A stretch of DNA of 64,000 bases from Erpobdella octoculata. Its lineage: Eukaryota; Annelida; Clitellata; Hirudinida; Erpobdellidae. The notes beneath the pieces were generated by a model. It was given only the letters and a program-made list of their open reading frames with translations, had not been told where the DNA came from and ran no database searches. The position numbers and the translations under genes were made by a program. Positions 1 to 49,313 of this stretch are shown here, piece by piece. Numbering within the stretch: the first letter of the stretch is position 1; the number at the start of each line of letters is the position of its first letter. The stretch is taken from the NCBI GenBank assembly GCA_963978895.1, contig OZ022242.1, positions 27,812,924 through 27,876,923 on the forward strand, read 5' to 3'.

Positions 1-1294
1 CAGATCTGATGGTAAAGGTAATTTCTCTTTTCAGAGCCTCTTTTCTTTGAATAAATCTTAGGTCAAGATTTTTGTCTGATGAGTTTTTTGCGATAGCATT
101 TGCTAACGCATTCGCTTTGTCTTTGTCAGAAAAAACGGTTTTATCTTCACTTAGTTTCAGCGCTGGAACGTTAAACCTGCATGTGTGTGGACCATATTTT
201 TCACCGCTTTCCACATGGTAGTCTGACTAGAGTTTAAGTTAAGAGAGCTACAGAATGTTTGCCAATGGTTCTCTTTTGCGGTCCTCACTATCTTCTGTGC
301 GATTTGTTTGATTTCTTGATACCGTTCAAAACCAGTCGTAGTATATTCTTTCCGAAGTGAGTATAAGACTTTGTTTCTTGCTTTGATTGCGTTTTCACAT
401 TCATCATTCCACCATGGTACTGGCCTAAGTCCTGATCGTCTTCCATTTTTGGTTGGTATTGATGCTATGGCTGCTTTGTTCAGACCTTGCGTTAACATGT
501 TTGTTGCTTCGTCAACATTTGTGAAAATTTAGAGTTCATTTAACACTACTGTTGAAAGCCGTTGGTATTAGTATCAATCGGCTTTTTCCAGGTTCCATAC
601 CTATCTGTTGTTTACCTCGTAATTGACCTTTTTATTTAGTGTGATCAATAGCGGGTAGTGGTCACTGCCCAGATTTTCATCTAACACCCTACACAAGGCT
701 TTTTGAAATAAAGAAGGAGAGCACATTGCTAAATCTATAGAAGTTGTCTTTCTGCTGGGAGTCAGGTAGGTACCTGATCCGGAAAAAGGGCAACAAGGCC
801 ATACTGGTCTAACAATTTCTCAATTAACTTTCCTCTATTATCTGAAGTTTCAGCACCGAAAACAACAGAATATGCATTGAAGTCACCTAATACAATTGAG
901 TTGGTATAAATGAATGACTTTTCCAGTGTAGATAGCAGTATTTGATGATTGGCATTTGGTGGAACGTATGCATTGATAATGGTGATGCTTGATCCCTTTT
1001 CAGAAAAAATGGTCACAAATAGTGACTCATATTCGTTTTGTTCTATGGTTTGCGAGGTTATGAGATGCTTTCTCGAGGGAGTGTTGCGACCCCTCCTCCT
1101 TGATGGAGGCCTCTATCTAGACTGACAATATTATAGCCTGAAATACTAAAGTTATTGCCTTCTTTCAGCCATGTTTCCTGCAGGGCAATGATGTCGGAAA
1201 TTTGTTCCATTTTTCCAAGAAAAATAGTTAGTTCGTTGACTCTCGTTCAAATACTCTGACAGTTCCACTGTAAAATGGTAAGATTGTTGTCCAT
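1..1294 (-). pseudogene. LINE ORF2: AP-endonuclease and start of RT linker (broken)
   Basis: Begins at an ATG (1294-1292) with MDNNLTILQWNCQSI, then IIALQETWL, the usual start of an APE-type endonuclease. The open stretch 1016-762 carries INAYVPPN and the catalytic GDFNAYS motif. The stretch 498-157 has PWWNDECENAIKARNKVLYS, typical of the linker between endonuclease and RT. A stop near 1247 and frame changes make it a pseudogene. The RT domain itself would lie left of the window. Confidence 0.8.
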
Positions 1295-3670: not shown

Positions 3671-3715
3671 CAACCCTGACGATGGCCGCAATGGCTGAAA
3701 CTTGCAAGTTGGTTG
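3671..3715 (+). ncRNA. Hammerhead ribozyme HHR1 (PLE-1)
   Basis: All core elements are in place. Stem I CAACC (3671-3675) pairs with GGTTG (3711-3715). Core CTGACGA is 3676-3682, stem II GGCC/GGCT with a 5-nt loop, GAAA 3697-3700, and a small self-complementary stem III CTTGCAAG. Predicted cleavage is after position 3710. The A of CTGACGA is the A of the ATG that starts the PLE reading frame. Hammerheads in PLE pseudo-LTRs are established knowledge. Confidence 0.85.
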
Positions 3716-3863
3716 CTAATAAAACGTTTGATTTTAGATTTAGTAAAAGTGTTTTCTCTCACTTAAAATATTTTAAGCGTTTAATTGACAAAACCGTGTC
3801 TTCTAAATGGCGTGTATATTTCAACAGAGCATGTTTAAATGAACATTTAGTGCCGAAATACTG

Positions 3864-3867
<4 letters not shown>
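3682..3867 (+). pseudogene. PLE-1 protein, N-terminal fragment
   Basis: Starts MAAMAETCKL inside the hammerhead and continues to [19 protein letters not shown], the conserved N-terminal block seen in the intact PLE at 42048. It runs into the (AT)n tract at 3868, giving only meaningless YIYI codons beyond. Confidence 0.75.
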
Positions 3868-3932
<65 letters not shown>

Positions 3933-4153: not shown

Positions 4154-6085
4154 TCAGTGTTTCTTGATTACATCGTCACTCTCTTTACGACTAAGAAAGT
4201 CAGCACCGATGTTCTCCTTGCCTTTGAAATAGTTTCCTTTCAACTTATTCTCAATCTCTATCTCTCTGCGTGCTGTGTCAACAGGGCGGGCATTTCCGAA
4301 GATTGCCGAATTCAACTTTCCATCTTTCCCCACCCCTCCATTTTGGCCTCTAGGCAGAAGATTGAGCCTTGGTCTTTCTTTTGGCGGATTTAAAGCTTGA
4401 ACTTTTGCCTCAACTTTATTTCCTACCTTTGAAATGGCAGACGTGTTTCTTTCCTTGCTTTGATACAGCTCCGAGTTAGCCGACGATTTTCTAAAATTTA
4501 CCCGATCATTCCTCTGATTGCTGTCGTAGTTGGAAGCGGATTTCTGTGGTTTCCGACCAAAGCGATTTCCTGCCGCCATTGCATCAAAACCCCTTACCCC
4601 TTCAACATTTCCCAGCACGAGATCGCAAAGTAGGTTTTTCATGCACACCACCTCTCTGGTTCCTCTGAACCAGTCTGTTTTGATTTTTACCACTGCTGTT
4701 GGGGCTACCCGGACTGTGCCGTCGATCAAAACACAAGGTCTTGTTCTTCCGGTCATCTGACGCGGGTGCACTAATGATTCCTTTACTATTATGGAAGTAC
4801 AGCCAGTGTCCCTCAAAACCTTTACCGGTTTTCTGTTCACAAACCCTCTGGTTAATTTAAACTTTTCTCCTGAGTGAAAACAACCATCCGCTATTACCGG
4901 TGAAAAGCAGCCACATTTTAATTGGACCTCATTCATTTTACCATCCAACACCATGACCGCGCATGCATTCACTACTCCAGAGTCTTTGCATGGTGGTGTC
5001 ATGGTGGCCACTCTACGCGTTTGACACATGACTGGAGTTGCTTGAGTGCCTTGACTGTAGTCCCTCGCGATCTGTCCAGCGTGATGACAATCCTTTGCCA
5101 TATGGCCCAGCTTATTGCAATTGTAACAGCGTGGTCCAACCATTCCGGAGTCAGAGTCTGGTTGACCACGATTTCCGCTAATCCTGCTTGCGTTCTCGAC
5201 TTTTGCCAAGCTTTTGACTGGGTGAGCTTGATTGTACTGGTTGACCCAGCGACTTAGCTCATTGACGTCACCGCTTTTTTTCTCCAACAAATACTCAGCC
5301 ATTCCCGAGGGACACTTTCCAAAGAACTGCTCTTTTAGGAACAAAAACAAATAGTTTTTTGTACCCGCGAGATCCACCCAGCGCCTGAGGTAACTATCTA
5401 GTCGCACCAGATACTGTATCCAAGTCTCTTCTGGCTCAAGCTTTGACTCTCGAAACTTTATTCGGTAGTCTTCTGCCGACTTCCCAAAACGGCGAAGGAG
5501 TGCCTCTTTTACCGACTCGTAATCCTGCATTTGACTCTCGCTGTGTTGGCCAAACACTTCCAATGTCTTAGCACTGAGCAGGGAACCCAGAAGCATTCCC
5601 CAACCCTTTTTTGGATGATAATTTGCCGTGGCCAATGCCTCAAAACGGAGCAGAAATGCGTCCACGTCGTCACCTTCCGAGAACTTTGGATATGGAATCT
5701 TTGTTACCTCTACCTTTGGCTCTTTTTTCGTTAGGGCCTCTAATTCCAGCTTTTTCAATTCCAATTCATGCTGGCGTTGTTCGCGCTCACGTAGAAGTTG
5801 AAGTTCTCGTTCTTCTTTAGCTTGTTGAAGTTGGAGTTCTCGTTCTTCTTTAGCTTGTTGAAGTTGGAGTTCTCGTTCTTCTTTAGCTTCTTGAGTCTTT
5901 TTCTCTTCATGTTCACGTTCTTGTTGTGCTATTTTATCTTCACGCTCCTGCTGAGCCTTTTTTTCTTCCCGTTCCTCCATTCTCTTAACCCTTTCTTCAT
6001 TCTTCAACTCTTTGACATAACTCCTTAAATCCACTCCGGAATAGCCTAGAGCCTGTCCCATCGCAATGAATTTCTCGTCAGACAT
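4154..6085 (-). CDS. Gag-protease polyprotein of Ty3-like element A
   Basis: 643-residue ORF starting MSDEKFIAMGQALGYSG just inside the 5' leader. Residues about 25-120 are a charged coiled coil with repeated KEERELQLQQA units. A capsid-like region follows (KIPYPKFSEGDDVDAFLLRF; W..YLVRLDSYLRRW). One zinc knuckle CYNCNKLGHMAKDC is near residue 325, and an aspartic protease motif VLRDTGCTSIIV near residue 430. The tail GADFLSRK resembles a post-RNase H junction. RT, RNase H core and integrase are absent, so mobility would need a partner. The ORF is intact, which suggests fairly recent activity or selection on gag. Confidence 0.85.
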   Translation of the reverse strand: MSDEKFIAMGQALGYSGVDLRSYVKELKNEERVKRMEEREEKKAQQEREDKIAQQEREHEEKKTQEAKEERELQLQQAKEERELQLQQAKEERELQLLREREQRQHELELKKLELEALTKKEPKVEVTKIPYPKFSEGDDVDAFLLRFEALATANYHPKKGWGMLLGSLLSAKTLEVFGQHSESQMQDYESVKEALLRRFGKSAEDYRIKFRESKLEPEETWIQYLVRLDSYLRRWVDLAGTKNYLFLFLKEQFFGKCPSGMAEYLLEKKSGDVNELSRWVNQYNQAHPVKSLAKVENASRISGNRGQPDSDSGMVGPRCYNCNKLGHMAKDCHHAGQIARDYSQGTQATPVMCQTRRVATMTPPCKDSGVVNACAVMVLDGKMNEVQLKCGCFSPVIADGCFHSGEKFKLTRGFVNRKPVKVLRDTGCTSIIVKESLVHPRQMTGRTRPCVLIDGTVRVAPTAVVKIKTDWFRGTREVVCMKNLLCDLVLGNVEGVRGFDAMAAGNRFGRKPQKSASNYDSNQRNDRVNFRKSSANSELYQSKERNTSAISKVGNKVEAKVQALNPPKERPRLNLLPRGQNGGVGKDGKLNSAIFGNARPVDTARREIEIENKLKGNYFKGKENIGADFLSRKESDDVIKKH

Positions 6086-16222: not shown

Positions 16223-19200
16223 ATGTCGGACGTAGGCAAGCTCATCGCTCTTTTCCAAGAACAAATGGTCAAGATGCAGGAAAGTCACCAAAAACAAATA
16301 GAGACAATTTTATCTCGAATGGGACCAGTGAACGCATCGATACCAAATTTCGCAAACTTCGACTCAACAAAAGAAATTTGGAGAGATTACTGGGCACGTT
16401 TCACAACATTCGCCAGGGCTCATTCTGTTTCTGCAGATAAGATGCCACAAGTTTTTCTCATGAGCCAAAGTCCCACCATCTACAAACTTCTCGACACTTT
16501 CGCAGAACAACAAACTCCACCAAGAAACATCAACACTCTGACCATGGAAGAGATTGTACAACACATGGAAGTACAATTTAATCCAAAAAGATTCATTGTC
16601 AGAGAAAGATACAGATTTTGGTCAGAAATGAATCGAAACACTGGTGAAAATGTTCACGAACTAGCAGCCCGAATTCGACAAGAAGCTTCCACATGTGATT
16701 TCTCCGCCATCCAGGACCCTCAAGATGAAGCTATGAGAACAAAGTTTATTTGCGCAATAAAAAATGAAGCGGTCTTGAAGGCTATTTTCAGGATGGATGA
16801 TGATGAGTTGACATTCACGAAAGCTGTAGAATTGGCTGCCGGTGTGGAGGATGCGGCAAGAGTGGCAAAGGAAACGGTGTATGGTACGCCATCACAAAAC
16901 TCGAATCTGACGAACTCGATCAACAAAATAAAAAGCAGAAGGGTACCAGTCGTTCCTGAAAACAAACACTCTTCTCCATCTAAAAACATTTGTTTGCGTT
17001 GTGGAAAACAAAACCACACAGCGAAGAATTGCAAAAACAGCAACCTGAAGTGTAATTTTTGCCATAAGACGGGACACCTGGAGATGGTGTGTTTCAAAAA
17101 GAAAAAACAAACAGTCACGGTGGTCCTTGACTCATCAGTAAAAAACATCCAGGACTCAAAACCTTTGTTTCAGTCATTAACACTCGACAGCAAGAAGTAC
17201 AATTTTCTCATTGACAGTGGAGCAAGGGACAGTTTCTGTTCAAAGGAGGTCTGGTTGAGCCTGGGAAAGCCATCATTGCAGCCATCTGCAAAATTTTACG
17301 TTTCAGCAACAGGAAACCACATTCCAGTAATGGGAACGTTCAAAATAATGGCAAATTTAGAGAATAATAGCCATAAAAGACAAGTCGAATTCAATGTCTC
17401 AGAGGTCCATGACCTCAATCTTCTCGGACGAAGAACAATCCTTGATTTAGAAATAGATGTCACAGCTATGATGAGAAATGAGGTGTACAACGTCTCAGAA
17501 CAATCACACGTAAATTTGCAAATAGCTTGTAAACAACTTTGTTCAGAATTTCGGGAACTGTTCAAGCCAGAATTGGGTTGTCTTAAAAATTTTGAATTAG
17601 ACATTAAGTTCAAACCAGAAGTGGAACCAGTTTTTTGCAAACCCAGAACAGTACCATTTGCAATTATCGAGGATCTGAACCAAACTTATGAAGCTGGAAT
17701 AAAAAAGGGCTTGTGGATTCCTACACAGTTCAATAGTTATGGAACACCGGTTGTGCCAATTCGCAAACAACTTCAACCAGGACAGCTGAAACCCAGTTTC
17801 AGAGTTTGTGGCGATTATTCAGTAACAATCAACAAACAGCTAGAAACTCATCGTCACCCCATGCCATTACCCGAGGATTTAATGAGAAAGCTCGGTGGAG
17901 GTTATTTCTTCAGCAAGATCGACCTTGCAGATGCTTACCATCAGATAAGACTGTCACCTGAAAGCCAGAAAAAGTTAGCATTGAGTACTCACAAAGGTGT
18001 TTTACTCCAAACAAGACTTCCTTTTGGAATTACATCTGCACCAGGATACTTTCAAGAGATCATGGAAAAGTTGACAAGCGATCTACAGGGAGTTGCCGTG
18101 TATCTGGATGACATCCTAGTGAGTGGAAAAGCAGCAGCAGAACATCTAAACAACCTGAAAGCTTTACTCCAACGATTACAGGACAACGGGTTAAGATGTA
18201 ATCTGAGTAAGTGTAGGTTTGCAGAATCATCAGTGGACTACCTCGGACACATGCTATCAAAAGATGGAATAAAAATGGGTCAACAGGTGAATGCAGTAGC
18301 TAAGATGCCACCTCCTACAAATGTGTCAACACTGAAATCTTTTTTGGGGTCAGTTCAATTTTACAGTAAATTCATCCCAAATCTTTCCACAATATCAGAA
18401 CCGTTGACTCGTCTAACCAGAAAAGAAACAACTTGGCAATGGACAAAACAAGAAGAAGTAACGTTTCAACACTTGAAAGACCTTCTTATGAAAGATGTCC
18501 AGTTAGCCCATTTTGACAAAACACTCCCGATCGGAATTTCCTGTGATGCCTCTGAGGTAGGAATTGGAGTGGTTCTTTTTCAACGTTATGCAGACGGAAG
18601 TGAAAGACCTTTGTTCAATGTGTCTAAGACACTCACCGACACACAACGACGATACAGTCAGATTCAAAAAGAGGCATTAGCTATTGTTTATGGTCTCCAA
18701 AAATACCACAATTATCTCTATGGCAGAAAATTTATTTTGGTTACAGATCACAAGCCTCTTCTCTCACTATTTAATCCAACAAAGGGAACTCCGGCAATGG
18801 CTGCCAATCGCCTTGCTCGATGGGCACTTAGTCTGAATCAATATGAATACTCCATCGAATACAGAAAAACAACTGAGCACGGAAATGCGGATGCACTCAG
18901 CAGATTGCCAGTTGGAGGAGAACAGGATTTTGATGCAAAAGAAGAAAAGGCAGAAATATCAACAGTTTGTATGATTCACACCATCAGTCAACAGATCAAA
19001 CCAGCAGATTCTAAAATATTGGCTAAAGAATCTAGCAGAGACCCAACAATCTCAACAGTCATGAGATATGTGAAAGAAGGATGGCCTAAACTGATGGAAA
19101 AAGACGAAATAAAACACTACGCAAAATTAGCAGACTCTCTAGTTACAGAAGGAGGATGTCTAAGATATGGAGCAAGACTAGTCATCCCAGAAAAAATCCG

Positions 19201-20308
19201 AAACCAAGTAGTCCAACTGCTACACCTAGGACACTTCGGAATACAAAGGATGAAGCAACTGGCTAGATCAGTTGTCTACTGGCCAGGCATAGACCACGAC
19301 ATTGAAAATCTTTGTCGTAGCTGTACAACTTGCGCAGAACACCAGAACAAAGCAGCAAAGTTTCCAAACCATCCATGGATGCTGCCAGAAAAGCCTTGGA
19401 GCAGAATACACCTAGACCATGCCATAAACTTCATGGACACTAACTGGTTAGTATTAATTGATGCTTATTCCAAATACCCATGCATCCATGCTACCGGTTC
19501 AGTAACAGCCAAGTCAACAATCCAGCTGTTAGAAGAGGATTTTGCACATTTTGGATATCCCCATGCATTGGTGACAGACAATGCACCAGCATTTCTATCA
19601 GATGAATTCCAGGAATGGTGCAGACAGCGTGGCATCACACATCTAACAGGCGCTCCATATCACCCAGCAACGAATGGAGCAGCAGAAAGACTTGTACAGA
19701 CATTCAAGCAATCACTAAGAAAATCTTCACACTCTCCAAGACAGGCACTGCAAGAATTCCTTCAACAGTACAGACGGACGCCATTAGATTCTGGCTACTC
19801 ACCCAGCGAATTATTAAATGGTCGTCAGATTCGAAGTCAGTTAGATGCTTTACTTCCATCTCCAACACAAGCCATCCAGAAAAAACAAAACCAAAAGAAA
19901 GTGACACAACCTGAGAGAAGATCGCAAATATTCCAGGAAGGAATGCCATGTTACGCCCTCCACTGTGGTCCTAAAAAGAACAAAGAACCCAGATGGATTC
20001 CTGCAGTCATAACAAAAGTGATGGGGCCTCGCAACATAAAAGTTCGAATTTTGCCAAATGGACCGATCTGGAAAAGACATGTAAATCAATTGAGAATCAG
20101 ATACGGGGCAGATCAAGACTCTGATCCAGGAGAACCCCCTGAAGGCAGACAACCACCAGCAGACCGGGAACTGTCGGAAGAGGAGAGTGACGGATTGTCT
20201 ATTGCGGATTCGGAGCAGGTGCCGGTGCAGTTTCGAAGATCACAGCGTGCCCGAAGACCACCACAAAGACTCATCATGGACCCAAACTTTGGAAACTCCC
20301 ACAGTTGA
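16223..20308 (+). CDS. Gag-pol polyprotein, Ty3/gypsy element 3
   Basis: 1361 residues in one frame, with no gag-pol frameshift. Gag covers about 1-240. Two zinc knuckles follow, CLRCGKQNHTAKNC (near 256) and CNFCHKTGHLEMVC (near 278). The protease motif FLIDSGARDSFC is near 328. RT shows YFFSKIDLADAYHQI (near 562) and catalytic AVYLDDILVSG (near 625). RNase H shows CDASEVGIGVV (near 773) and ends with DALSRLP. The integrase has a zinc domain (H..H near 1001, CTTC near 1034) and a DDE core: LIDAYSKYP, VTDNAPAF and TNGAAERL with 35 residues between the last Asp and Glu. All catalytic motifs are present, so it may be active. No envelope gene is seen. Confidence 0.97.
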   Translation: MSDVGKLIALFQEQMVKMQESHQKQIETILSRMGPVNASIPNFANFDSTKEIWRDYWARFTTFARAHSVSADKMPQVFLMSQSPTIYKLLDTFAEQQTPPRNINTLTMEEIVQHMEVQFNPKRFIVRERYRFWSEMNRNTGENVHELAARIRQEASTCDFSAIQDPQDEAMRTKFICAIKNEAVLKAIFRMDDDELTFTKAVELAAGVEDAARVAKETVYGTPSQNSNLTNSINKIKSRRVPVVPENKHSSPSKNICLRCGKQNHTAKNCKNSNLKCNFCHKTGHLEMVCFKKKKQTVTVVLDSSVKNIQDSKPLFQSLTLDSKKYNFLIDSGARDSFCSKEVWLSLGKPSLQPSAKFYVSATGNHIPVMGTFKIMANLENNSHKRQVEFNVSEVHDLNLLGRRTILDLEIDVTAMMRNEVYNVSEQSHVNLQIACKQLCSEFRELFKPELGCLKNFELDIKFKPEVEPVFCKPRTVPFAIIEDLNQTYEAGIKKGLWIPTQFNSYGTPVVPIRKQLQPGQLKPSFRVCGDYSVTINKQLETHRHPMPLPEDLMRKLGGGYFFSKIDLADAYHQIRLSPESQKKLALSTHKGVLLQTRLPFGITSAPGYFQEIMEKLTSDLQGVAVYLDDILVSGKAAAEHLNNLKALLQRLQDNGLRCNLSKCRFAESSVDYLGHMLSKDGIKMGQQVNAVAKMPPPTNVSTLKSFLGSVQFYSKFIPNLSTISEPLTRLTRKETTWQWTKQEEVTFQHLKDLLMKDVQLAHFDKTLPIGISCDASEVGIGVVLFQRYADGSERPLFNVSKTLTDTQRRYSQIQKEALAIVYGLQKYHNYLYGRKFILVTDHKPLLSLFNPTKGTPAMAANRLARWALSLNQYEYSIEYRKTTEHGNADALSRLPVGGEQDFDAKEEKAEISTVCMIHTISQQIKPADSKILAKESSRDPTISTVMRYVKEGWPKLMEKDEIKHYAKLADSLVTEGGCLRYGARLVIPEKIRNQVVQLLHLGHFGIQRMKQLARSVVYWPGIDHDIENLCRSCTTCAEHQNKAAKFPNHPWMLPEKPWSRIHLDHAINFMDTNWLVLIDAYSKYPCIHATGSVTAKSTIQLLEEDFAHFGYPHALVTDNAPAFLSDEFQEWCRQRGITHLTGAPYHPATNGAAERLVQTFKQSLRKSSHSPRQALQEFLQQYRRTPLDSGYSPSELLNGRQIRSQLDALLPSPTQAIQKKQNQKKVTQPERRSQIFQEGMPCYALHCGPKKNKEPRWIPAVITKVMGPRNIKVRILPNGPIWKRHVNQLRIRYGADQDSDPGEPPEGRQPPADRELSEEESDGLSIADSEQVPVQFRRSQRARRPPQRLIMDPNFGNSHS

Positions 20309-31925: not shown

Positions 31926-32172
31926 CTTTCGTGCATGCTCCGTTAAAAATAACTGCCCATTTTTTTTTTATAATTTTTTTAACATAAGATTCTAATCTAC
32001 GGACAACAACTTTGTTTTTTACTTAAAAAACAAAGTTGTTGTCCGTAGATTAGAATCTTATGTTAAAAAAATAAAAAAATTATAAACAAAAAATGGGCAG
32101 TTATTTTTAACGGAGCATGCACGAAAGAAAATCTACTGCCGAGTTACGCAAAAAACACAAAATATAAGTTGT
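31923..32172 (+). mobile_element. PLE-6: foldback of PLE 5' coding end
   Basis: An almost perfect palindrome: 31923-32016 is the reverse complement of 32022-32132. The plus arm encodes the PLE N-terminal block KWAVIFNGACTKENLLPSY (around 32087-32150), so this is a PLE start joined head-to-head to its own inverted copy. It lies against an (AT)n run on the left and runs into the SINE-like cluster on the right. Confidence 0.75.
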
Positions 32173-35197: not shown

Positions 35198-35577
35198 TCA
35201 TTTTCAACTTTTAATTAAACTCTCAATTTTATCGATATCCTATTATCTTTGAATTGTAGCTTTAAATTCTTATTTTATTATTTTACCTCTTTGCTTTTAT
35301 TAGTAATTTTCTTTTAATAGTTATATTTTACTACTTAATTTGGTTGTATATTTTAGCACATGTAATTTTTTATTTTTTCTTATATTTTTGTTTATTTTTT
35401 GTTTATTTATTTACTCCGAGGCAAAAAATTTGGTTGTTTCTTAGCGGTTTTCATATTTTACTTTTACTCTTCTTTGTACTTTGACCTCGATTGATGTGTA
35501 AACATATCTGATATGTCTCGCCACACCACTTTATATATTTTCGTTGTAGCTGTAAATTGGTTTTATGAGTTCTGATG

Positions 35578-36147
<570 letters not shown>

Positions 36148-36239: not shown

Positions 36240-37973
36240 ATGTCTGATACAGAGAAATTCATCGCGATGGGACAAGCTCTGGGCTATTCCGGAGAAGAAT
36301 TGAAGAATTTTGTCAAAGAATTGAAGGATGAAGATCGAGATAGAAGAATGGAGGAACGGAATAAGGCTCAACTAGAACGGGAACGTGAGCGTGAACACCA
36401 ACTGCTGCGTGAGCGCGAACAACGAGAGCATGAGCGCGAACAACGAGAGCATGAGCGCGAAGAACGAGAGCATGAATTGGGAAAGCTAGAATTGGAGTCA
36501 CAAACGAAAAAAGAAACGAAGCCGTCAGTAGAGGCTACTAAGATTCCTTATCCAAAATTTTCTGAAGGTGACGACATCGATGCATTTTTGCTGAGATTTG
36601 AGTCATTGGCAAGAGCCAATGGTCACCCTCAGAAAGATTGGAGAATGCTTCTGGGTTCTCTGCTAAGTGCGAAGACATTGGAAGTGTTTGGCCAACTCAG
36701 CGATAGTCAGATGCAGGACTACAGAACGGCAAAGGAGGCACTCCGTCGTCGTTTTGGGAAGTCGGCGGAAGACTATCGGATTATGTTTCGAGAGTCAAAG
36801 ACCTGGGAACACTATCTTGTACGGCTGGATAGCTACTTCAGGCGCTGGGTGGACCTCGCCGGTGCACAAAATTTAATGTTTTTGTTTCTAAAGGAGCAGT
36901 TCTTTGGAAAGTGCCCGAGGGGAATGGTCGAGTATTTGTTGGGGAAAGACAGTAGCAATGTCAATGAGCTGAGTCTCTGGGTCAACAAATACAGCCAGCC
37001 CCACCCGGAAAAAAGATTAGCAAAAGCAAAAGTAGAAAATACTTATAGGATTAATGGAAATCGGTGTCAATGGGTCAGTGACTCTAAAATGGTTGGACAA
37101 GGCTGTTACAATTGTCATCAAGTTGGACATTTGGCGAAGGGCTGCAGACAAGGTCCTCAGGCAAGTCCAGTCATGTGTCAAGCAGGAAGAGAGGCCACCA
37201 TGCAAAGATTCCGGAGTAGTGAATGCTTCGCGGCCATGGTACTTGACGGTGAAAAGTTTAATTTCACTTAAGATTTTGTGAATAGGAAACCATTAAAGGT
37301 TTTGAGGGACACCGGCTGTACGGCCATAATGGTAAAGAAATCGTTAGTACACCCGCGTCAGATGACCGGAAGAACAATACCATGTGTTTTGATCGACGGC
37401 ACAGTCCGGATAGCTCCAACAGCAATAGTGAAACTCAAAACAGACTGGTTCAGAGGAACCAGAGAGGTTGTGTGCATGAAAAACTTACTTTGCGATCTGG
37501 TGCTGGGAAATGGTGAAGGAATAAAAAGTTTGGATGCAATGGCTGCATGGAAACGCGTTGGTCGGCAACCACAGAAACCCACTCCTAACTACGACAACAC
37601 ACAGAGAAATGATAGGGCATATTATAGGAAAACGTCGGCTAACTCGGATCTGTATCAAAGCAAGAAAAGAAACACGTGTGCCACTTCAAAGTTGGGAAAT
37701 AAAGTTGAGGCAAAAGTTCAAGCTATGAATCCGCCAAAAGAAAGACCAAGGCTCAATCTTCTGCCTAAAAGCCAGCATGGAGGGGTGGGGAAAGATGAAA
37801 AGTTGAATTCGTCAATCTTCGGAGATGCCCGCCCAGTTGACACAACACGCAGAGAGCTAGAGGTTGAGAGAAAGTTTAAAGAAAATCAAGCTACCAAGGA
37901 ACGGCTTGTCAACCAAAGTGGTTTAAAAAAACACCTAATTTTTTTTTCGGGAGAGGGGGGATATGTAAGATGA
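36240..37973 (+). pseudogene. Gag-protease of Ty3-like element B (one break)
   Basis: First frame 36240-37271: MSDTEKFIAMGQALGYSG, coiled coil of EREQREHE units, KIPYPKFSEGDDIDAFLLRF and the knuckle CYNCHQVGHLAKGC (last-His region intact). A deletion plus stop after LDGEKFNFT breaks it. The second frame 37278-37973 resumes with NRKPLKVLRDTGCTAIMV, the protease, and ends near the LTR. It matches the element A protein throughout and likewise carries no pol, showing that the two copies share the same deletion. Confidence 0.85.
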
Positions 37974-40261: not shown

Positions 40262-40262
<1 letters not shown>

Positions 40263-40267
<5 letters not shown>

Positions 40268-41618
40268 TACAAGAAACGGACCACATCAACCTGATCGCTT
40301 GCAATCTACTAACGTCGTGTATAAATTCACCTGCCCTCTAAAACATACTTCAATAGAAACATACATTGGACACACCCGCACCACTCTATCTCGGCGCCTC
40401 ACTATGCACTTGCAAGGCGGTAGCATAGCAGCACATTTCCAGACTGCCCACGGTGTTAAACTCACTAGACAAACACTTGTGGATAATACCATTATTTTGC
40501 ATCACGTTCCAGAACCAGCTCGTTTGAAAATTGCCGAGGCACTTTATATAGTCCGTGACCGACCTTCCATAAATATACAAGAAGATCACTCCGGACATAT
40601 CCTAAAGCTTTTTACTACAGCTACTAATCACTCAGTTCATAACATAAACCTACTTCATAATGCTCATACCATTACTTCTAAAGATGTAATGATTAACGCA
40701 TTGCCTTCCTCTTCACTTGCCGTCGTTTCTTTGCCCTCCGTCGGTCACAAATCTGAACGTCCCATACGATCTAGTGTATCTGTACTCTGTACTAAGAGTT
40801 CGTCACCGGAGACTGTAAGGATTCCCCGTCAAAGATCTCGCTCTCATGACCATAATCTTGGTTCTTCTCCTTCATCATCTCTTTCACACCCTAGAATTGT
40901 TGCTAATAACTACCACAGCGAACGTTCTTCTCCACGACGCCCCATGCCAACTAATGAAACTCAGTACAGTCCTGGTTCTCTCTTTCATCCACCTACCTGT
41001 GCTTCTTCATCCTCCATCGACCACGAAGCAGCGTGTCCCAGAAAATCTATTGCACCTGACCTCTACACTGCGAGCATGTCACCAAAAACTATGAAAGTTT
41101 CCCGCCAAAGACCTCGTTCTCACGACCGTGATCCCCGTTGCTCAATTTCACCATCTTTCTTACTTTCTCGAATTGGTGTTTACAACTACCATAGTGAACG
41201 TCCTTCTCGTTTACGTCCGACCGTCAGCACGATTCCAGGCCAGCATACTCCATACAGTCTTCGTTTGCCTTTTCACCCAACTAATGTTGCCCCTGTGGAG
41301 CACAAACCTGAATGTCCCTTACAATGTATTAGATCTGCACTCGGTACTAAGAGTTCGTCACCAGGAAATACAAAGGTATCCCGCCAAAGATATCATTCCC
41401 AGAATTGTAGTCATGGTTTCTCCCCTTCGCCATCCTACTTACTTCCTAGAACCTGTCATAGTGAACGTGCTTCTTCTCGGAGACGGCCCCTCACCATGAT
41501 TCCTACCAGTCGAACTTTGTACATTCCTCGTTTGTTTGCTTTGACTAGTAATGGTGACCACAACACCCTCTTTTCTAATTTAATTAATAACCCAAACATT
41601 ACATTACGTAGACGTTAA
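40263..41618 (+). CDS. PLE-3 C-terminal duplicate (GIY-YIG and tail)
   Basis: 451 residues identical to residues 715-1165 of the full protein at 42000-45497. It is a by-product of the pseudo-LTR structure: the GIY-YIG domain (VVYKFTCP, TYIGHTRTTLSRR) and repeat tail without the RT. Whether it is translated separately is unknown. Confidence 0.75.
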
Positions 41619-41999
41619 TTTTAGATTTTTCTCGCTCTTGGTATTCTAGTTTATGTATTATTTTCGGTCATATTTATTTTATATTTGCTCTTATGATTTC
41701 AATGGTAATTAATACATCCCTTTGTTTTATTTTTTGCTCTTAATTCTATTGATTTATTTTCTTTCTATCTATGTATACTTCGACATTTAAGGCCTTCAAT
41801 TTTTATTTACAATTCTTATCGACGAAAAACTAACACCTGTATCGACGAAAACTAACACCAACAATTATTATGTTAAATTTAATTTATATTTGCTTCTTTG
41901 ATTTTAGTCTTAATTAATACCTTCCCTCGCATTTTATTTTGGTCATATTTTATTTTTATCTACGTACTTCCACATTTCATTATTTGTTTTTAATCGTCT
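41619..41999 (+). other. PLE-3 3' UTR with mini-copies of the element boundary
   Basis: T-rich noncoding segment. Near 41818-41870 it holds two short tandem versions of the boundary sequence (TATCGACGAAAAACTAACACC and TATCGACGAAAACTAACACC, each cut at 20 here), related to ATCGACGAAAAATTAACACC at the true pseudo-LTR edge (42211-42230). Confidence 0.7.
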
Positions 42000-44900
42000 T
42001 TGTTTATGTTCGGTTCCTGTACCGCCGGCCTTTTGCTTTTTCTGAAGATGGCTGAAAAAATAGCCGAAACTTGCAAGTTAAAAAGTAATAAAGATTTGTA
42101 TAATCGGGCGTTCTTTGAACAACTTCGTGGGCGAGTTAAATTACGCGAACTATCTCATTTAATAGAAAAAGTTTGCAACAAAACTTGGTCAATAAAATTT
42201 AACCGAGCCTGTATCGACGAAAAATTAACACCTAATTATTTGAATAATAAATACCGAGGCTCTAGGATTTCTAATTCATTTGATACTGTTCGTGATGCCC
42301 TAGAAAGAGAAATTACTGAAGCACAGCTCGAGGTGAATAAATTAACTGCTTCGCTACGTGCTTCAGTCAAGGCCTATCAGACTTTGCTCCCTAATAAAGC
42401 TTCCACTGATGCTTTTCAGCAGTTCATTGATTCTAGCACTGACAGAGTTAATCGTCGGAAAAAGAACATCATTATCAACAAACTGTCCTCATTGTATGGC
42501 GCAAAGTTTTTACTCAGGGATGAACCAAACCATTTTATGAACTTGTCCTCATACTCTCCCACAGAACCTGAGATCAGATTTTTGCAGCTTGGTTACAACT
42601 ACCACGTCCCCGGCAAATATTGTTCAATAAAGAAACAAATTGAACTAGAAATGTTGATGATGCAGTTTGAGCCACATCTTCTAAATCGTTCTATTTCTGT
42701 TGATAATCGATTCCAAACACTACTCAAAGCAGAAGGATTGAAACATCGTCATGCTTCACATGGAATCGATCGAGAACTACACACAGCTGCCCACTCATTG
42801 AAAAATAATTCCACCATTACTATACGAAAAGCAGACAAATCGCATGCCTACGTCATTTTGAATACATCAGATTATCTAAATAAATTGAATGATATAGTAT
42901 CTGATACAACTAAATTTTTGGAGATTACCAAAGATCCAACTTTGGAAATCAAACGAAAAACTAACAAAGTAATAGGCAACATTCTTCGGAAAAATCCCAT
43001 AGCCGGCATGCATCAGATTATTGGAGATTTCTCACCGGGATATATTTACGGCAACGTAAAAACTCACAAATCTGATTTCCCAATTAGGCCAATAATTTCG
43101 CAAAGCCCCACTCCTACATTTGATATTGCGAAGTATCTTGTTAAAGTGATTTCTCCATACTGCCCTTGTCAATATACAGTGAAATCATCTTTCGAATTTA
43201 TTAATTTAGTCAAAGGCAACCGTCATACCACCGGTGTTATGAGTTCATTGGATGTCGTTGACTTGTTCACAAATGTGCCTACTGATGAAACCATCAAAAT
43301 TATCCTGCAATACTTATACCATAACTCTAAGTTATCACCTCCCATCATACCCGAAGAATCCATGTCTGAACTGCTATCGTTATGCACCAAGGAATTACCG
43401 TTTCGGCACCCAGATGGACGACTGTTTCGACAAATTAACGGCATTGCTATGGGATCTCCCTTAGGTCCCATCTTTGCCAACTTTTATTTGGGCCATATTG
43501 AAAGTATCGTTTTTGACACCTTTGCCAAACCGCCAATGTATGTACGTTACGTCGACGATATTTTTGTAATTTGCCAAGACGCTACCCAACTTGAAGACCT
43601 CCGGGTTACATTACAACAACATTCAGTTTTAAAGTTTACAGTAGAAAATAGCGATCCACAACACGGGTTGGCATTTTTGGATGTGTTGCTTACCCAATGT
43701 GATACCGGTATAGCGTACTCATCGTATGTAAAGCCATCATCCGAAGGTCTTTGTATGAACGGGGCTGGTTACTGTCCAGTTAAATACAAGGAAAGTGTTA
43801 TCTTTAACTTATTAGCTCGTGCTTACGAGTTATCTGAAGACCGGTCTCATTTCCATACAGAGGTTCAGCGTCTCAAAACACTACTTGTGAACAATAATTA
43901 TACTAATACCATGATTGACGCCGTCATCGAGAGGTTTGTTCGACGAAAAACTAACAATATCTCAACTCCCGTAAATAATATAAAGACTATCGATGTTCGG
44001 TATTGCGCTCAAATGCATGACAATTATCATCTTGATGAAAAGATTTTACGTCAGATTATCGGAAATTGCGTGACAGTTAATGACCGAAACCGACATCGAC
44101 TTCAATTTTCTATATATTATAAAAACAAGAAATCACACTCTATGATTACAAGAAACGGACCACATCAACCTGATCGCTTGCAATCTACTAACGTCGTGTA
44201 TAAATTCACCTGCCCTCTAAAACATACTTCAATAGAAACATACATTGGACACACCCGCACCACTCTATCTCGGCGCCTCACTATGCACTTGCAAGGCGGT
44301 AGCATAGCAGCACATTTCCAGACTGCCCACGGTGTTAAACTCACTAGACAAACACTTGTGGATAATACCATTATTTTGCATCACGTTCCAGAACCAGCTC
44401 GTTTGAAAATTGCCGAGGCACTTTATATAGTCCGTGACCGACCTTCCATAAATATACAAGAAGATCACTCCGGACATATCCTAAAGCTTTTTACTACAGC
44501 TACTAATCACTCAGTTCATAACATAAACCTACTTCATAATGCTCATACCATTACTTCTAAAGATGTAATGATTAACGCATTGCCTTCCTCTTCACTTGCC
44601 GTCGTTTCTTTGCCCTCCGTCGGTCACAAATCTGAACGTCCCATACGATCTAGTGTATCTGTACTCTGTACTAAGAGTTCGTCACCGGAGACTGTAAGGA
44701 TTCCCCGTCAAAGATCTCGCTCTCATGACCATAATCTTGGTTCTTCTCCTTCATCATCTCTTTCACACCCTAGAATTGTTGCTAATAACTACCACAGCGA
44801 ACGTTCTTCTCCACGACGCCCCATGCCAACTAATGAAACTCAGTACAGTCCTGGTTCTCTCTTTCATCCACCTACCTGTGCTTCTTCATCCTCCATCGAC

Positions 44901-45497
44901 CACGAAGCAGCGTGTCCCAGAAAATCTATTGCACCTGACCTCTACACTGCGAGCATGTCACCAAAAACTATGAAAGTTTCCCGCCAAAGACCTCGTTCTC
45001 ACGACCGTGATCCCCGTTGCTCAATTTCACCATCTTTCTTACTTTCTCGAATTGGTGTTTACAACTACCATAGTGAACGTCCTTCTCGTTTACGTCCGAC
45101 CGTCAGCACGATTCCAGGCCAGCATACTCCATACAGTCTTCGTTTGCCTTTTCACCCAACTAATGTTGCCCCTGTGGAGCACAAACCTGAATGTCCCTTA
45201 CAATGTATTAGATCTGCACTCGGTACTAAGAGTTCGTCACCAGGAAATACAAAGGTATCCCGCCAAAGATATCATTCCCAGAATTGTAGTCATGGTTTCT
45301 CCCCTTCGCCATCCTACTTACTTCCTAGAACCTGTCATAGTGAACGTGCTTCTTCTCGGAGACGGCCCCTCACCATGATTCCTACCAGTCGAACTTTGTA
45401 CATTCCTCGTTTGTTTGCTTTGACTAGTAATGGTGACCACAACACCCTCTTTTCTAATTTAATTAATAACCCAAACATTACATTACGTAGACGTTAA
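42000..45497 (+). CDS. PLE-3 reverse transcriptase with GIY-YIG endonuclease (intact)
   Basis: 1165 codons open; the start conserved among PLE copies is the ATG at 42048 (MAEKIAETCKL), giving 1149 residues. N-terminal block: [32 protein letters not shown] (near 280), GYIYGNVKTHKSDFPIRP (near 344), SLDVVDLFTNVP (motif A, near 415), GIAMGSPLGPIFANF (near 482), YVRYVDDIFVI (catalytic, YVDD at 517-520). Linker: EGLCMNGAGYC. GIY-YIG: VVYKFTCP and TYIGHTRTTLSRRL (near 725-760). Tail: three Arg/Ser/His-rich modules (RQRSRSHDHN, RQRPRSHDRD, RQRYHSQNC, each followed by HSER) and an end NPNITLRRR. PLE proteins are telomerase-related RTs that prime on nicked DNA. All key residues are present, so it may be active. 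Confidence 0.95.
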   Translation: MFMFGSCTAGLLLFLKMAEKIAETCKLKSNKDLYNRAFFEQLRGRVKLRELSHLIEKVCNKTWSIKFNRACIDEKLTPNYLNNKYRGSRISNSFDTVRDALEREITEAQLEVNKLTASLRASVKAYQTLLPNKASTDAFQQFIDSSTDRVNRRKKNIIINKLSSLYGAKFLLRDEPNHFMNLSSYSPTEPEIRFLQLGYNYHVPGKYCSIKKQIELEMLMMQFEPHLLNRSISVDNRFQTLLKAEGLKHRHASHGIDRELHTAAHSLKNNSTITIRKADKSHAYVILNTSDYLNKLNDIVSDTTKFLEITKDPTLEIKRKTNKVIGNILRKNPIAGMHQIIGDFSPGYIYGNVKTHKSDFPIRPIISQSPTPTFDIAKYLVKVISPYCPCQYTVKSSFEFINLVKGNRHTTGVMSSLDVVDLFTNVPTDETIKIILQYLYHNSKLSPPIIPEESMSELLSLCTKELPFRHPDGRLFRQINGIAMGSPLGPIFANFYLGHIESIVFDTFAKPPMYVRYVDDIFVICQDATQLEDLRVTLQQHSVLKFTVENSDPQHGLAFLDVLLTQCDTGIAYSSYVKPSSEGLCMNGAGYCPVKYKESVIFNLLARAYELSEDRSHFHTEVQRLKTLLVNNNYTNTMIDAVIERFVRRKTNNISTPVNNIKTIDVRYCAQMHDNYHLDEKILRQIIGNCVTVNDRNRHRLQFSIYYKNKKSHSMITRNGPHQPDRLQSTNVVYKFTCPLKHTSIETYIGHTRTTLSRRLTMHLQGGSIAAHFQTAHGVKLTRQTLVDNTIILHHVPEPARLKIAEALYIVRDRPSINIQEDHSGHILKLFTTATNHSVHNINLLHNAHTITSKDVMINALPSSSLAVVSLPSVGHKSERPIRSSVSVLCTKSSSPETVRIPRQRSRSHDHNLGSSPSSSLSHPRIVANNYHSERSSPRRPMPTNETQYSPGSLFHPPTCASSSSIDHEAACPRKSIAPDLYTASMSPKTMKVSRQRPRSHDRDPRCSISPSFLLSRIGVYNYHSERPSRLRPTVSTIPGQHTPYSLRLPFHPTNVAPVEHKPECPLQCIRSALGTKSSSPGNTKVSRQRYHSQNCSHGFSPSPSYLLPRTCHSERASSRRRPLTMIPTSRTLYIPRLFALTSNGDHNTLFSNLINNPNITLRRR
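42036..42085 (+). ncRNA. Hammerhead ribozyme HHR3 (PLE-3, left)
   Basis: Stem I CTTTTT (42036-42041) pairs with AAAAAG (42080-42085). Core CTGAAGA is 42042-42048, stem II GGCT/AGCC with an 8-nt loop, GAAA 42066-42069, stem III CTTGCAAG, cleavage predicted after 42079. It covers the ATG at 42048. Confidence 0.85.
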
Positions 45498-46128
45498 TTT
45501 TAGATTTTTCTCGCTCTTGGTATTCTAGTTTATGTATTATTTTCGGTCATATTTATTTTATATTTGCTCTTATGATTTCAATGGTAATTAATACATCCCT
45601 TTGTTTTATTTTTTGCTCTTAATTCTATTGATTTATTTTCTTTCTATCTATGTATACTTCGACATTTAAGGCCTTCAATTTTTATTTACAATTCTTATCG
45701 ACGAAAAACTAACACCTGTATCGACGAAAACTAACACCAACAATTATTATGTTAAATTTAATTTATATTTGCTTCTTTGATTTTAGTCTTAATTAATACC
45801 TTCCCTCGCATTTTATTTTGGTCATATTTTATTTTTATCTACGTACTTCCACATTTCATTATTTGTTTTTAATCGTCTTTGTTTATGTTCGGTTCCTGTA
45901 CCGCCGGCCTTTTGCTTTTTCTGAAGATGGCTGAAAAAATAGCCGAAACTTGCAAGTTAAAAAGTAATAAAGATTTGTATAATCGGGCGTTCTTTGAACA
46001 ACTTCGTGGGCGAGTTAAATTACGCGAACTATCTCATTTAATAGAAAAAGTTTGCAACAAAACTTGGTCAATAAAATTTAACCGAGCCTGTATCGACGAA
46101 AAATTAACACCTAATTATTTGAATAATA
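44141..46128 (+). repeat. Right pseudo-LTR of PLE-3
   Basis: Second copy of 40262-42249. It contains the ORF end, 3' UTR, HHR4 and an N-terminal fragment (45927 onward) ending TPNYLNN where (AT)n begins. Confidence 0.95.
45915..45964 (+). ncRNA. Hammerhead ribozyme HHR4 (PLE-3, right)
   Basis: Exact duplicate of HHR3 at an offset of 3879. Two ribozymes per element would release a unit-length RNA. Confidence 0.85.
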
Positions 46129-46263: not shown

Positions 46264-46523
46264 TGTAAGATGGCATAAGATTTTCTTTAAGACAAGCTCG
46301 ATTAAAAATAAGTCTCCATTTAGCCGCTATGAGTTTTATAGATACTTTCTCAATATTTCGAAACGGCCCGTAAGTCTGAAATAAAGAAGGTCTTAAATGT
46401 TAATACTTTTCTTAATACGTGTTGCAGTAAACAAAAAACGTTGTTCCGAAATATTGAGAAAGTATCTATAAAACTCATAGCGGCTAAATGGAGACTTATT
46501 TTTAATCGAGCTTGTCTTAAAGA
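46260..46523. mobile_element. PLE-4: foldback PLE 5' end
   Basis: 46274-46361 is the reverse complement of 46449-46522. The plus arm starts in the middle of a hammerhead (CGAAACGGCCCGTAAGTCTG near 46358) and encodes [20 protein letters not shown]. No RT or endonuclease sequence. Sequence type matches PLE-5. Confidence 0.8.
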
Positions 46524-47144: not shown

Positions 47145-47321
47145 GGCATAAGATTTTCTTTAAGACAAGCTCGATTAAAAATAAGTCTCCATTTAGCCGC
47201 TATGAGTTTTATAGATACTTTCTCAATATTTCGGAACAACGTTTTTTGTTTACTGCAACACGTATTAAGAAAAGTATTAACATTTAAAACTTTCTTTATT
47301 TCAGACTTACGGGCCGTTTCG
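47145..47321 (-). pseudogene. PLE-5 N-terminal fragment, inverted arm
   Basis: Minus strand: [15 protein letters not shown], then [20 protein letters not shown]. It runs slightly further into the protein than the plus copy at 48901-49077. Confidence 0.75.
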
Positions 47322-47344
47322 GCTTTCGCCATCTTCAGAGTCTG
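47302..47344 (-). ncRNA. Hammerhead ribozyme HHR6 (PLE-5 inverted arm)
   Basis: Reverse complement of HHR5: stem I CAGACT/AGTCTG, core CTGAAGA, stem II GGC/GCC closed by GAAA, then GAAA and a minimal stem III. Confidence 0.85.
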
Positions 47345-47398
47345 TAAATACGATCGCGTAAAAGGAGGCAAAAGATAATCGATTTCTATAGAAATCAG

Positions 47399-48665: not shown

Positions 48666-48888
48666 GCTACTATTATTTTATCCTTTAATTAAACGTTTTT
48701 AATTATACTTATTTTATCCTCATAACTCCAGTTTATTTTATGTACGTTATTTAATTACATTGTCTAAATTTGATTATTTTTATTAATATCCTTCTATTGA
48801 GATGATTCCTTGAGGATATTAGTTTATTTGTATATTTAGTTATTACATGTTTTCTTATCTTTTGCCTCCTTTTACGCGATCGTATTTA

Positions 48889-48931
48889 CAGACTCTGAAG
48901 ATGGCGAAAGCCGAAACGGCCCGTAAGTCTG
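48889..48931 (+). ncRNA. Hammerhead ribozyme HHR5 (PLE-5)
   Basis: Stem I CAGACT (48889-48894) pairs with AGTCTG (48926-48931). Core CTGAAGA is 48895-48901, stem II GGC-GAAA-GCC, GAAA 48913-48916, a two-pair stem III CGGCCCG, cleavage predicted after 48925. It contains the ATG of MAKAETA (48901). Confidence 0.85.
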
Positions 48932-49078
48932 AAATAAAGAAAGTTTTAAATGTTAATACTTTTCTTAATACGTGTTGCAGTAAACAAAAAACGTTGTTCC
49001 GAAATATTGAGAAAGTATCTATAAAACTCATAGCGGCTAAATGGAGATTTATTTTTAATCGAGCTTGTCTTAAAGAAT

Positions 49079-49313
49079 ATATATATATATATATGTATGT
49101 GCGTATGAATGTGTGTAGGTATGTATGTATGTGTATGTGCATGTATGTGTGTCTGTGTTTATGTATGTATGTATGTATGTATGTATGTGTTTTTACAATA
49201 TTTCGGCACTAAATGCTCATTCAAAGTATGTATGTGTGTGTATGTATCTATGTATGTATGTATGTATGTATGTATGTATGTGTGTATGTATGTATGTATG
49301 TATGTATGTATGT
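49079..49313 (+). repeat. (AT)n and (ATGT)n microsatellite
   Basis: Short AT run then ATGT repeats, with a small PLE-1-like fragment (TTTCGGCACTAAATG near 49200). Supplies the target duplication of the next hAT element. Confidence 0.9.

What the first reader, a model, noticed from the sequence alone, without database searches (positions are those of the whole stretch)
42036..42085. Hammerhead ribozyme built on the start codon of the Penelope-like polyprotein
In every PLE lineage here (3671, 35565, 42036/45915, 48889) the ATG is formed by the last A of the CTGANGA core plus the first two bases of stem II. The conserved peptide MA..AETC is therefore read from the catalytic core (TGGCN..GCC, GAAAC). 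Predicted cleavage (after 42079 in PLE-3) falls about 31 nt downstream of that ATG, so self-cleavage would cut the start codon off the ORF. Either uncleaved RNA is the mRNA, or translation starts elsewhere on the cleaved RNA. PLE hammerheads are known; I do not know whether this dual coding and its regulatory consequence have been described.
Basis: partly seen in the sequence, partly recalled or inferred. Interest (0 to 1): 0.9.

Follow-up and report, generated by a model that had tools for sequence, protein, structure and literature searches.

The report
Ribozyme core spells retrotransposon start codon
In the Penelope-like jumping genes of this genome, the core of a predicted self-cutting RNA (hammerhead ribozyme) also spells the predicted start codon of the element's own protein, so cutting would remove the start signal; this overlap was already reported for one lizard element, and here it extends to at least eight families but apparently not to all.

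Summary
All six hammerheads in the window carry an ATG made of A9, an extra unpaired U (position 10) and G10.1. At 42048 that ATG heads a 1,149-codon Penelope-like ORF; the predicted cut lies 32 nt downstream. Stem I pairs leader with coding sequence and covaries between families. As dimers, 4 of 4 window lineages fold into a double hammerhead. The 386 Mb genome has 2,626 exact matches to the GGC-stem pattern with this U, 13 with another base there and none without an insert.
The overlap is not new in principle: Frangieh et al. 2024 reported it for the Anolis element PAc, whose hammerhead cut only with its protein present.
New here:
(1) The extra U makes the AUG, with invariant A6 at -3.
(2) Eight families keep the ORF in frame with that AUG although loop lengths differ.
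(3) In homologous proteins, residue 2 and the residue before Glu-Thr are codon-complementary in 10 of 18 stretches (3.1 in shuffles), as stem II predicts.
A regulatory switch is plausible but untested.

The parts
42036..42085 (+). Hammerhead C (5' copy). Stem I 5' strand 42036-42041; core CTGAAGA 42042-42048; extra U10 at 42049; stem II plus loop 42050-42065; GAAA 42066-42069; palindromic stem III CTTGCAAG 42070-42077; U16.1 42078, U17 42079; predicted cut after 42079; stem I 3' strand 42080-42085
42048..45497 (+). Penelope-like polyprotein ORF, 1,149 aa, whose ATG (42048-42050) is A9-U10-G10.1 of hammerhead C; RVT_1 domain at residues 383-524
42006..42008 (+). Upstream in-frame ATG (T at -3, T at +4). 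Shifted out of frame by a 1-nt insertion in the long open copy L052, so probably not the start
45915..45964 (+). Hammerhead C' (3' copy, identical to C); ATG 45927; predicted cut after 45958. Cut-to-cut unit with C is 3,879 nt
45959..46128 (+). 3' tail: first ORF codons repeated after the 3' hammerhead, ending at (TA)n
40262..42249 (+). Upstream 5'-truncated unit (C-terminal ORF, pseudo-LTR, hammerhead, start of ORF), 100% identical to 44141-46128: head-to-tail tandem
3671..3715 (+). Hammerhead A; ATG 3682-3684 (MAAMAETC); predicted cut after 3710; 3'-terminal copy
35563..35615 (+). Hammerhead B; ATG 35578-35580 (MANKAETC) with an in-frame stop 4 codons upstream; predicted cut after 35606; 3'-terminal copy
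48889..48931 (+). Hammerhead D; ATG 48901-48903 (MAKAETA); predicted cut after 48925; 3'-terminal copy
47302..47344 (-). Hammerhead D' on the minus strand, in a 226-nt copy inverted to D (arms 47153-47378 and 48855-49080, 99%); ATG 47332-47330

Best explanation
The predicted start codon of these Penelope-like ORFs is A9-U10-G10.1 of a hammerhead core, so that predicted self-cleavage 25-32 nt downstream would cut the start codon off, and the uncleaved RNA is therefore likely the mRNA while cleavage likely acts as an off-switch. Shown here: an extra U, absent from the textbook core (recalled), makes the AUG. The invariant core base A6 sits at -3 of that AUG, a favourable context (recalled). Eight families keep the ORF in frame with this AUG. 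Stem I pairs leader with coding sequence. Stem III is a short palindrome or nearly so, so the fold closes as a dimer of two hammerheads. Inferred: while ribosomes use the RNA it is not cut. When element protein accumulates, it binds the first part of the ORF (proposed for Anolis PAc in PMC11167929) and brings two hammerheads together. They then cut, which would end translation of that RNA. In the families where the hammerhead AUG opens only a short uORF, the same cut would instead free the main ORF from the uORF.
For: Hammerhead: 14 pairs over 11 family representatives are 94.6% paired, with 35 double-sided changes against 12.0 in shuffles (0 of 500), and all six stem I pairs covary. Extra U, GGC-stem pattern, exact matches: 2,626 with T10 (reversed control 0), 13 with A, C or G (control 1), 0 without an insert (control 0). 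Of 65 copies the finder sees in fetched DNA, 62 have U10 and the other three are C10 copies fetched on purpose (most of this DNA was fetched by patterns that ask for U10). Dimer: 4 of 4 window lineages give a double hammerhead with CUGANGAU unpaired. Start codon: long ORFs run from this ATG in two lineages (1,149 and 1,127 aa in C; 1,020 aa in D). Families A, B, F3, F7 and F9 have no in-frame ATG between the last upstream stop and the core. pN < pS in 36 of 36 family pairs beyond the cut (the alignment was made in that frame). Frame: of 101 strings copied from the GGC-stem listing, 80 have an ATG-to-GAAAC distance divisible by 3. F7 (13 of the 101) loses the AET peptide, but in its less decayed copies the ORF is still in frame with the ATG. 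Cut RNA: the first in-frame ATG comes after 152 codons, behind four out-of-frame ATGs. Protein-assisted cutting: PMC11167929.
Against: No cleavage or 5'-end data exist for this genome. In Anolis no RNA-seq ends map to the cut, and hammerhead mutants insert normally in vitro (PMC11167929). Family C folds no better than shuffles as a monomer (z 0.16), and the dimer gain exceeds most shuffles only for A and C (10 and 9 of 200 as low; B 144, D 52). In one search two measures are not exceptional: pairs with a double change (9 against 6.9; 34 of 500) and further pair types (18 against 16.8; 178 of 500). The representatives were picked by a pattern that fixes core and stem II, and most also passed a finder that asks for 4 bp of stem I, so part of the pairing is by selection. 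U10 is kept in families whose AUG does not head the ORF (F8, G1, G3, G4), so it may be kept for catalysis alone. C and D have an upstream in-frame ATG in some copies. Rfam hammerhead models do not reach threshold.
Confidence: 0.5

Rival explanations
1. The overlap has no regulatory role. U10 is kept because it helps catalysis, an AUG arises automatically, and some families adopted it as their start. Cutting is rare in vivo and serves, if anything, to trim tandem transcripts.
For: U10 persists where the AUG heads only a 3- to 18-codon uORF. No in vivo cut ends and no effect of hammerhead mutants on insertion in Anolis. I recall, without having been able to read it, that De la Pena and Flores 2001 (JBC) found a U at this position to raise the cleavage rate 3-4 fold; only its title was seen, in a reference list.
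Against: Eight families hold the ORF frame to this AUG across different loop II lengths, and in lineages C and D it heads long open ORFs.
Confidence: 0.33
2. Cut-to-cut RNA is the functional form. Two cuts in a tandem transcript release a 3,879-nt unit that is ligated into a circle. The junction rebuilds the hammerhead and its AUG, so the circle again encodes the whole ORF.
For: Tandem units are 100% identical over 40262-42249 and 44141-46128. The unit joined end to end in silico reads 1,149 aa from the rebuilt AUG. Retrozymes of plants and animals are reported as circular RNAs (PMC7229834, PMC7761336; passages read).
Against: No circular RNA of an autonomous PLE is mentioned in the passages I read. 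A circle lacks a cap and would need internal initiation.
Confidence: 0.1
3. Translation starts at the upstream ATG 42006 and the hammerhead codes for an internal stretch.
For: 42006 is in frame in the window copy and several others.
Against: It is out of frame in L052, which keeps a 1,127-codon ORF. Families A, B, F3, F7 and F9 have no such ATG. Its context is poor (T at -3 and +4).
Confidence: 0.05
4. All families start beyond the cut and the class 1 N-termini are translated only by chance.
For: 119 of 232 homologues from other sources start 34-40 residues before the conserved FN..C motif, nearer than hammerhead-type starts.
Against: In lineage C the first in-frame ATG beyond the cut comes after 152 codons, behind four out-of-frame ATGs. 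The codon-complementarity of residue 2 and the residue before Glu-Thr would be unexplained.
Confidence: 0.05

Closest known systems
Anolis carolinensis PAc (Poseidon) element hammerhead, Frangieh et al. 2024, PMC11167929 (parts 1-3 of 4 of the text read; no supplement)
   Same: ORF starts at the hammerhead; [quoted passage not shown] hammerhead in the tandem pseudo-LTR; insertions end inside the first part of the ORF. The RNA printed in its Methods also has the extra U (CUGAGGA-U-GCC..GGC-GAAAC; my reading by eye).
   Different: There stem II is GCC:GGC and residues 2 and before E are P and G; here mostly A and A. The parts I read do not mention the extra U, frame conservation across families, or families whose hammerhead AUG opens a uORF.
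[quoted passage not shown] Lunse et al. 2017)
   Same: Minimal type I layout with almost no stem III, location in PLE pseudo-LTRs, likely action as dimers (as told in reviews PMC6155905 and PMC7761336, passages read).
   Different: Neither original paper is held in the library, so I could not check whether they note the start codon or the extra U.
HDV-like ribozymes of R2 and other non-LTR elements
   Same: Self-cleaving motif at the 5' side of a retrotransposon, linked to 5'-end processing and translation initiation (passage in PMC7761336).
   Different: As I recall, those leave the ORF start on the 3' product. Class 1 here would cut it off; class 2 families here are closer to that layout.

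Membership tests
Type I hammerhead ribozyme | Core CUGANGA ... GAAA with A15.1-U16.1 and H17 not G | tested here: met
   Six of six window copies; invariant columns in 11 family representatives
Type I hammerhead ribozyme | Three helices supported by compensatory changes | tested here: met
   double changes in six of six stem I pairs, two of four stem III pairs (A15.1-U16.1 counted with it) and one of four stem II pairs; covariation score 0.583 against 0.242, 0 of 500 shuffles as high; two weaker measures not exceptional (34 and 178 of 500)
Type I hammerhead ribozyme | Catalytic self-cleavage | not testable with these tools
   Needs an in vitro assay. Rfam models stay below threshold (best HH9, 21.7 bits, E 0.84; no hammerhead among the matches in six other loci): a practical, not a defining, test
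Penelope-like element | Reverse transcriptase of the PLE kind | tested here: met
   RVT_1 E 8.3e-08; 247 homologues at E <= 0.001; PLE assignment of the family itself is by recall and by the layout shared with PMC11167929
Penelope-like element | GIY-YIG endonuclease domain | tested here: inconclusive
   Not called by Pfam in this ORF. A TYIGHTRTTLSRRL stretch is seen by eye. Four listed homologues carry PF01541 (P0070, P0129, P0200, P0225), which I recall to be GIY-YIG
Penelope-like element | Tandem or partial tandem with pseudo-LTRs holding hammerheads, and 3' tail from inside the ORF | tested here: met
PAc-type start codon inside the hammerhead | ORF ATG at A9-U10-G10.1, predicted cut 25-32 nt downstream | tested here: met
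   Families A, B, C, D, F3, F7, F9, F12; not met in F8, G1, G3, G4; five families open
PAc-type start codon inside the hammerhead | Cleavage only with the element's protein | not testable with these tools
   Shown in vitro for PAc

The most novel reading that the evidence does not exclude
The hammerhead AUG is a translation switch whose sign depends on the element. In class 1 the cut removes the ORF's own AUG and turns translation off. In class 2 the cut removes a uORF AUG and frees the ORF. In both, the trigger is element protein pairing two hammerheads, so the ribozyme measures protein dose and converts mRNA into transposition template. A visible consequence is that base pairing in a ribozyme dictates amino-acid covariation in the protein: residue 2 against the residue before Glu-Thr.
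Probability: 0.22. Interest if true: 0.85.

Novelty: new member of a known kind. Interest (0 to 1): 0.56.

Why it matters
The activity and role of PLE hammerheads in vivo are called a mystery in a 2020 review (PMC7761336, passages read). If the core doubles as start codon in many families and as uORF start in others, the question becomes directly testable: break the cut without touching the AUG and measure protein. It would also be a clear case where a ribozyme and a protein N-terminus are read from the same bases, with catalytic pairing visible as residue covariation.

Tried and rejected
Rfam scan as detector: the PLE hammerheads fall below threshold. Monomer fold of C: no better than shuffles. 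Cross-species DNA for PLE homologues: viral contigs and genome contigs gave pattern matches but no relatives, so the cross-species test rests on proteins only. The covariance model R1 could not be used on the whole genome. No-insert control for the GAC:GTC families: asked repeatedly, never answered. Cervera 2014, Lunse 2017, Arkhipova 2017, Craig 2021, Schostak 2008 and De la Pena and Flores 2001 are not held (one search was a wrong identifier for Lunse). 'In every lineage' was given up.

Full report
WHAT IS THERE. Around 40262-46128 lies a head-to-tail tandem of a Penelope-like element (PLE). A 5'-truncated unit is followed by a full unit, 100% identical over 40262-42249 and 44141-46128, spacing 3,879 nt. 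The full ORF, read from 42048, has 1,149 codons and an RVT_1 match, with 247 database homologues. Five further hammerheads belong to this element's 3' end and to three other PLE lineages, one of them twice.

THE HAMMERHEAD. At 42042 the sequence reads CTGAAGA-T-GGCT-GAAAAAAT-AGCC-GAAA-CTTGCAAG-TT^AAAAAG. A scan for core, stem II, GAAA, UH site and stem I finds six copies in 64 kb, all followed by PLE N-terminal codons, and none in 100 shuffles. Eleven family representatives from window and genome, aligned, give 94.6% paired cells, 35 double-sided changes (shuffle mean 12.0, 0 of 500 as high), and a sharp optimum against slid versions. Two further measures of that call are not exceptional (34 and 178 of 500). 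Core and stem II were fixed by the search pattern, and most representatives also passed a finder that asks for 4 bp of stem I, so the independent evidence is the rest of stem I, the letters of its pairs, and stem III. Stem I pairs leader with coding sequence. Stem III is a palindrome or nearly so without a loop, so it closes between two copies: dimer folding gives a double hammerhead in 4 of 4 lineages, with CUGANGAU unpaired (stem I 5, 6, 6, 6 of 6 pairs; stem III 10 of 10, 9 of 10, 10 of 10, 7 of 9 residues paired across). The energy gain of the dimer stands out from shuffles for A and C only (10 and 9 of 200 as low; B 144, D 52), and C as a monomer is not stable beyond chance. Rfam models miss these forms.

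THE EXTRA U. The textbook core (recalled) joins A9 directly to G10.1. Here a U stands between them, so A9-U10-G10.1 is AUG. Its -1 is the invariant G8 and its -3 the invariant A6; +4 is G in the GGC-stem families. Genome-wide the GGC-stem pattern with T10 has 2,626 exact matches and its reversed control none. A, C or G at that place gives 13 (control 1): 9 with C, 2 with A, 2 with G, most of them otherwise like a known form (by eye). Without any insert there are none. Other stems with T10 add 1,280 matches against 35 in controls, many of those listed with stem GAC:GTC. The no-insert control for GAC:GTC stems was not obtained. I recall that a U at this site speeds cleavage (De la Pena and Flores 2001; only the title was seen).

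IS THAT AUG THE START? In eight families (A, B, C, D, F3, F7, F9, F12) the frame from this AUG continues into a conserved N-terminal domain (..K.W...FN.AC..E); F8 is the ninth row of the alignment. All 36 pairs of the nine have pN below pS beyond the cut, and differences by codon position are 838, 615, 954 (the alignment was made in that frame, which favours this). In A, B, F3, F7 and F9 copies with the family's leader have no in-frame ATG between the last upstream stop and the core. In C the upstream ATG 42006 is in frame in the window but shifted out by one inserted base in L052, whose ORF stays open for 1,127 codons. D has a long open copy (L057, 1,020 codons from the hammerhead ATG), with an upstream in-frame ATG 18 codons earlier. 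Among 101 strings copied from the listing of the GGC set (of 2,626 matches, the first on contig C1) the ATG-to-GAAAC distance is divisible by 3 in 80. The exceptions are informative: F7 (13 of the 101) has a UUCG-type loop and no AET peptide, yet in its less decayed copies (L034, L065, L068, L069, L071) the ORF is still in frame with the ATG; in L034, L065, L069 and L071 a stop lies a few codons upstream. Other F7 copies (L024, L064, L070) have stops. So the ATG, not the peptide, is what is kept.

WHERE THE RULE FAILS. F8 (eight copies read: L029, L043, L058-L063; L042 holds the L029 copy): ATG GCT TTT TAT AGC TGA; the ORF domain resumes beyond stops, and seven of the eight have an ATG there (at +100 in L061; L060 has a valine codon instead). 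G1 (L077): an 11-codon uORF, then an ATG at +49, the cut being at +28. G3 (L079): MTS*, ORF in another frame with an ATG at +50, and a VETGQL remnant upstream in the ORF frame, as if the start had moved. G4 (L080 and L065): an 18-codon uORF, then an ATG at +67. For G1 and G3 a single copy each was read, though the three exact G3 core strings in the listing share the early stop. That the ORF starts at these downstream ATGs is inferred. F5, F11, G2, G5 and G6 could not be classed. In the GAC:GTC strings listed, the ATG-to-GAAAC distance takes 12, 13, 14, 15, 16 and 17 nt (by eye), with no sign of a preference for multiples of three. Thus of 17 families 8 are class 1, 4 are class 2 and 5 are open.

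CROSS-SPECIES CHECK IN PROTEIN SPACE. If stem II is coded by codon 2 and the codon before GAA, the first two bases of those codons must be reverse complements, so residue 2 and the residue before Glu-Thr should covary. Three searches (247, 748 and 776 hits; the best 120 of each listed; 232 distinct proteins) hold 18 stretches of the form M-x-(1..7)-x-E-T ahead of the domain. Ten are compatible (A..A, E..S twice, D..S, S..D twice, T..V, K..F, L..S, L..N), against 3.1 in shuffles (fraction 0.0001) and 7% for random residues. In the ETS/ETC subset it is 7 of 9 against 2.4 (0.00135). The true register gives 10 of 18 and the best shifted one 6 of 16. Three of the ten come from one clade about 61% identical, P0152 supplies two of the 18 rows, and I had looked at some N-termini before framing the test. 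Anolis PAc (M-P-AIDV-G-ETS, from the RNA printed in PMC11167929) fits as well. No DNA was available for these proteins. Against universality, 119 of the 232 start 34-40 residues before FN..C, which would be close to or beyond the cut; 36 start at 41-70, 7 nearer, 6 farther, and 64 had no anchor.

WHAT CUTTING WOULD DO. Linear cut RNA of C would have its first in-frame ATG after 152 codons, behind four out-of-frame ATGs; a ligated circle would restore the AUG and the 1,149-codon ORF (in silico). In class 2 the main ATG would stay on the 3' product, 19-69 nt from its new end. Known from Anolis (PMC11167929; parts 1-3 of 4 of the text): cutting in vitro needs the element's protein, the protein is proposed to bind within the first 172 nt of the ORF, reverse transcription starts 111-118 nt inside the ORF, hammerhead mutants insert normally in vitro, and no reads begin or end at the cut. 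My preferred reading, that cutting is a dose-dependent off-switch in class 1, is inference.

PRIOR ART. PMC11167929 states the overlap for one element. Seven searches showed no other held paper that describes it, judged from titles, starts of abstracts and passages read in PMC6155905, PMC7229834, PMC7761336, PMC6431247, PMC6466107, PMC10085705, PMC8490949 and PMC3088659. The two original PLE-hammerhead papers are not held, so I cannot say it is absent from print.

Noticed in passing
window 3676-3870, 35572-35760, 45921-46128, 48895-49080; 3'-terminal copies in L013-L076: Insertions end inside the ORF start (first (TA)n about 159-209 nt after the hammerhead ATG in the 3'-terminal copies) and run into (TA)n repeats. 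This resembles the internal reverse-transcription start of PAc (111-118 nt) and suggests TA-rich targets.
   Followed up: partly
window 47153-47378 and 48855-49080: A 226-nt mini-copy holding only the hammerhead and tail sits inverted to the 3' end of lineage D (99% complementary); opposite-strand D pairs also lie close together at C1:1060906/1061486 and C1:10684395/10685661.
   Followed up: no
window 41820-41870 and 42207-42232: Two AC-rich repeats (tatcgacgaaaaactaacacc) in the pseudo-LTR resemble the stretch near the end of the 3' tail, perhaps traces of earlier insertions or the reverse-transcription start site (by eye).
   Followed up: no
window 31978-32067 and 46323-46485: Near-perfect inverted repeats that hit plant miRNA models below threshold; probably foldback elements.
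   Followed up: no
window 16223-20308, 4154-6085, 36240-37271: By eye: a long open Gypsy-like gag-pol ORF (1,361 aa) and two related gag-like ORFs with zinc knuckles.
   Followed up: no
L024, L026, L034, L045, L064-L066, L068-L071: Family F7 has replaced loop II by a UUCG-type (or UUCA) tetraloop, giving up the AET peptide, while in its less decayed copies the downstream ORF stays in frame with the AUG.
   Followed up: partly
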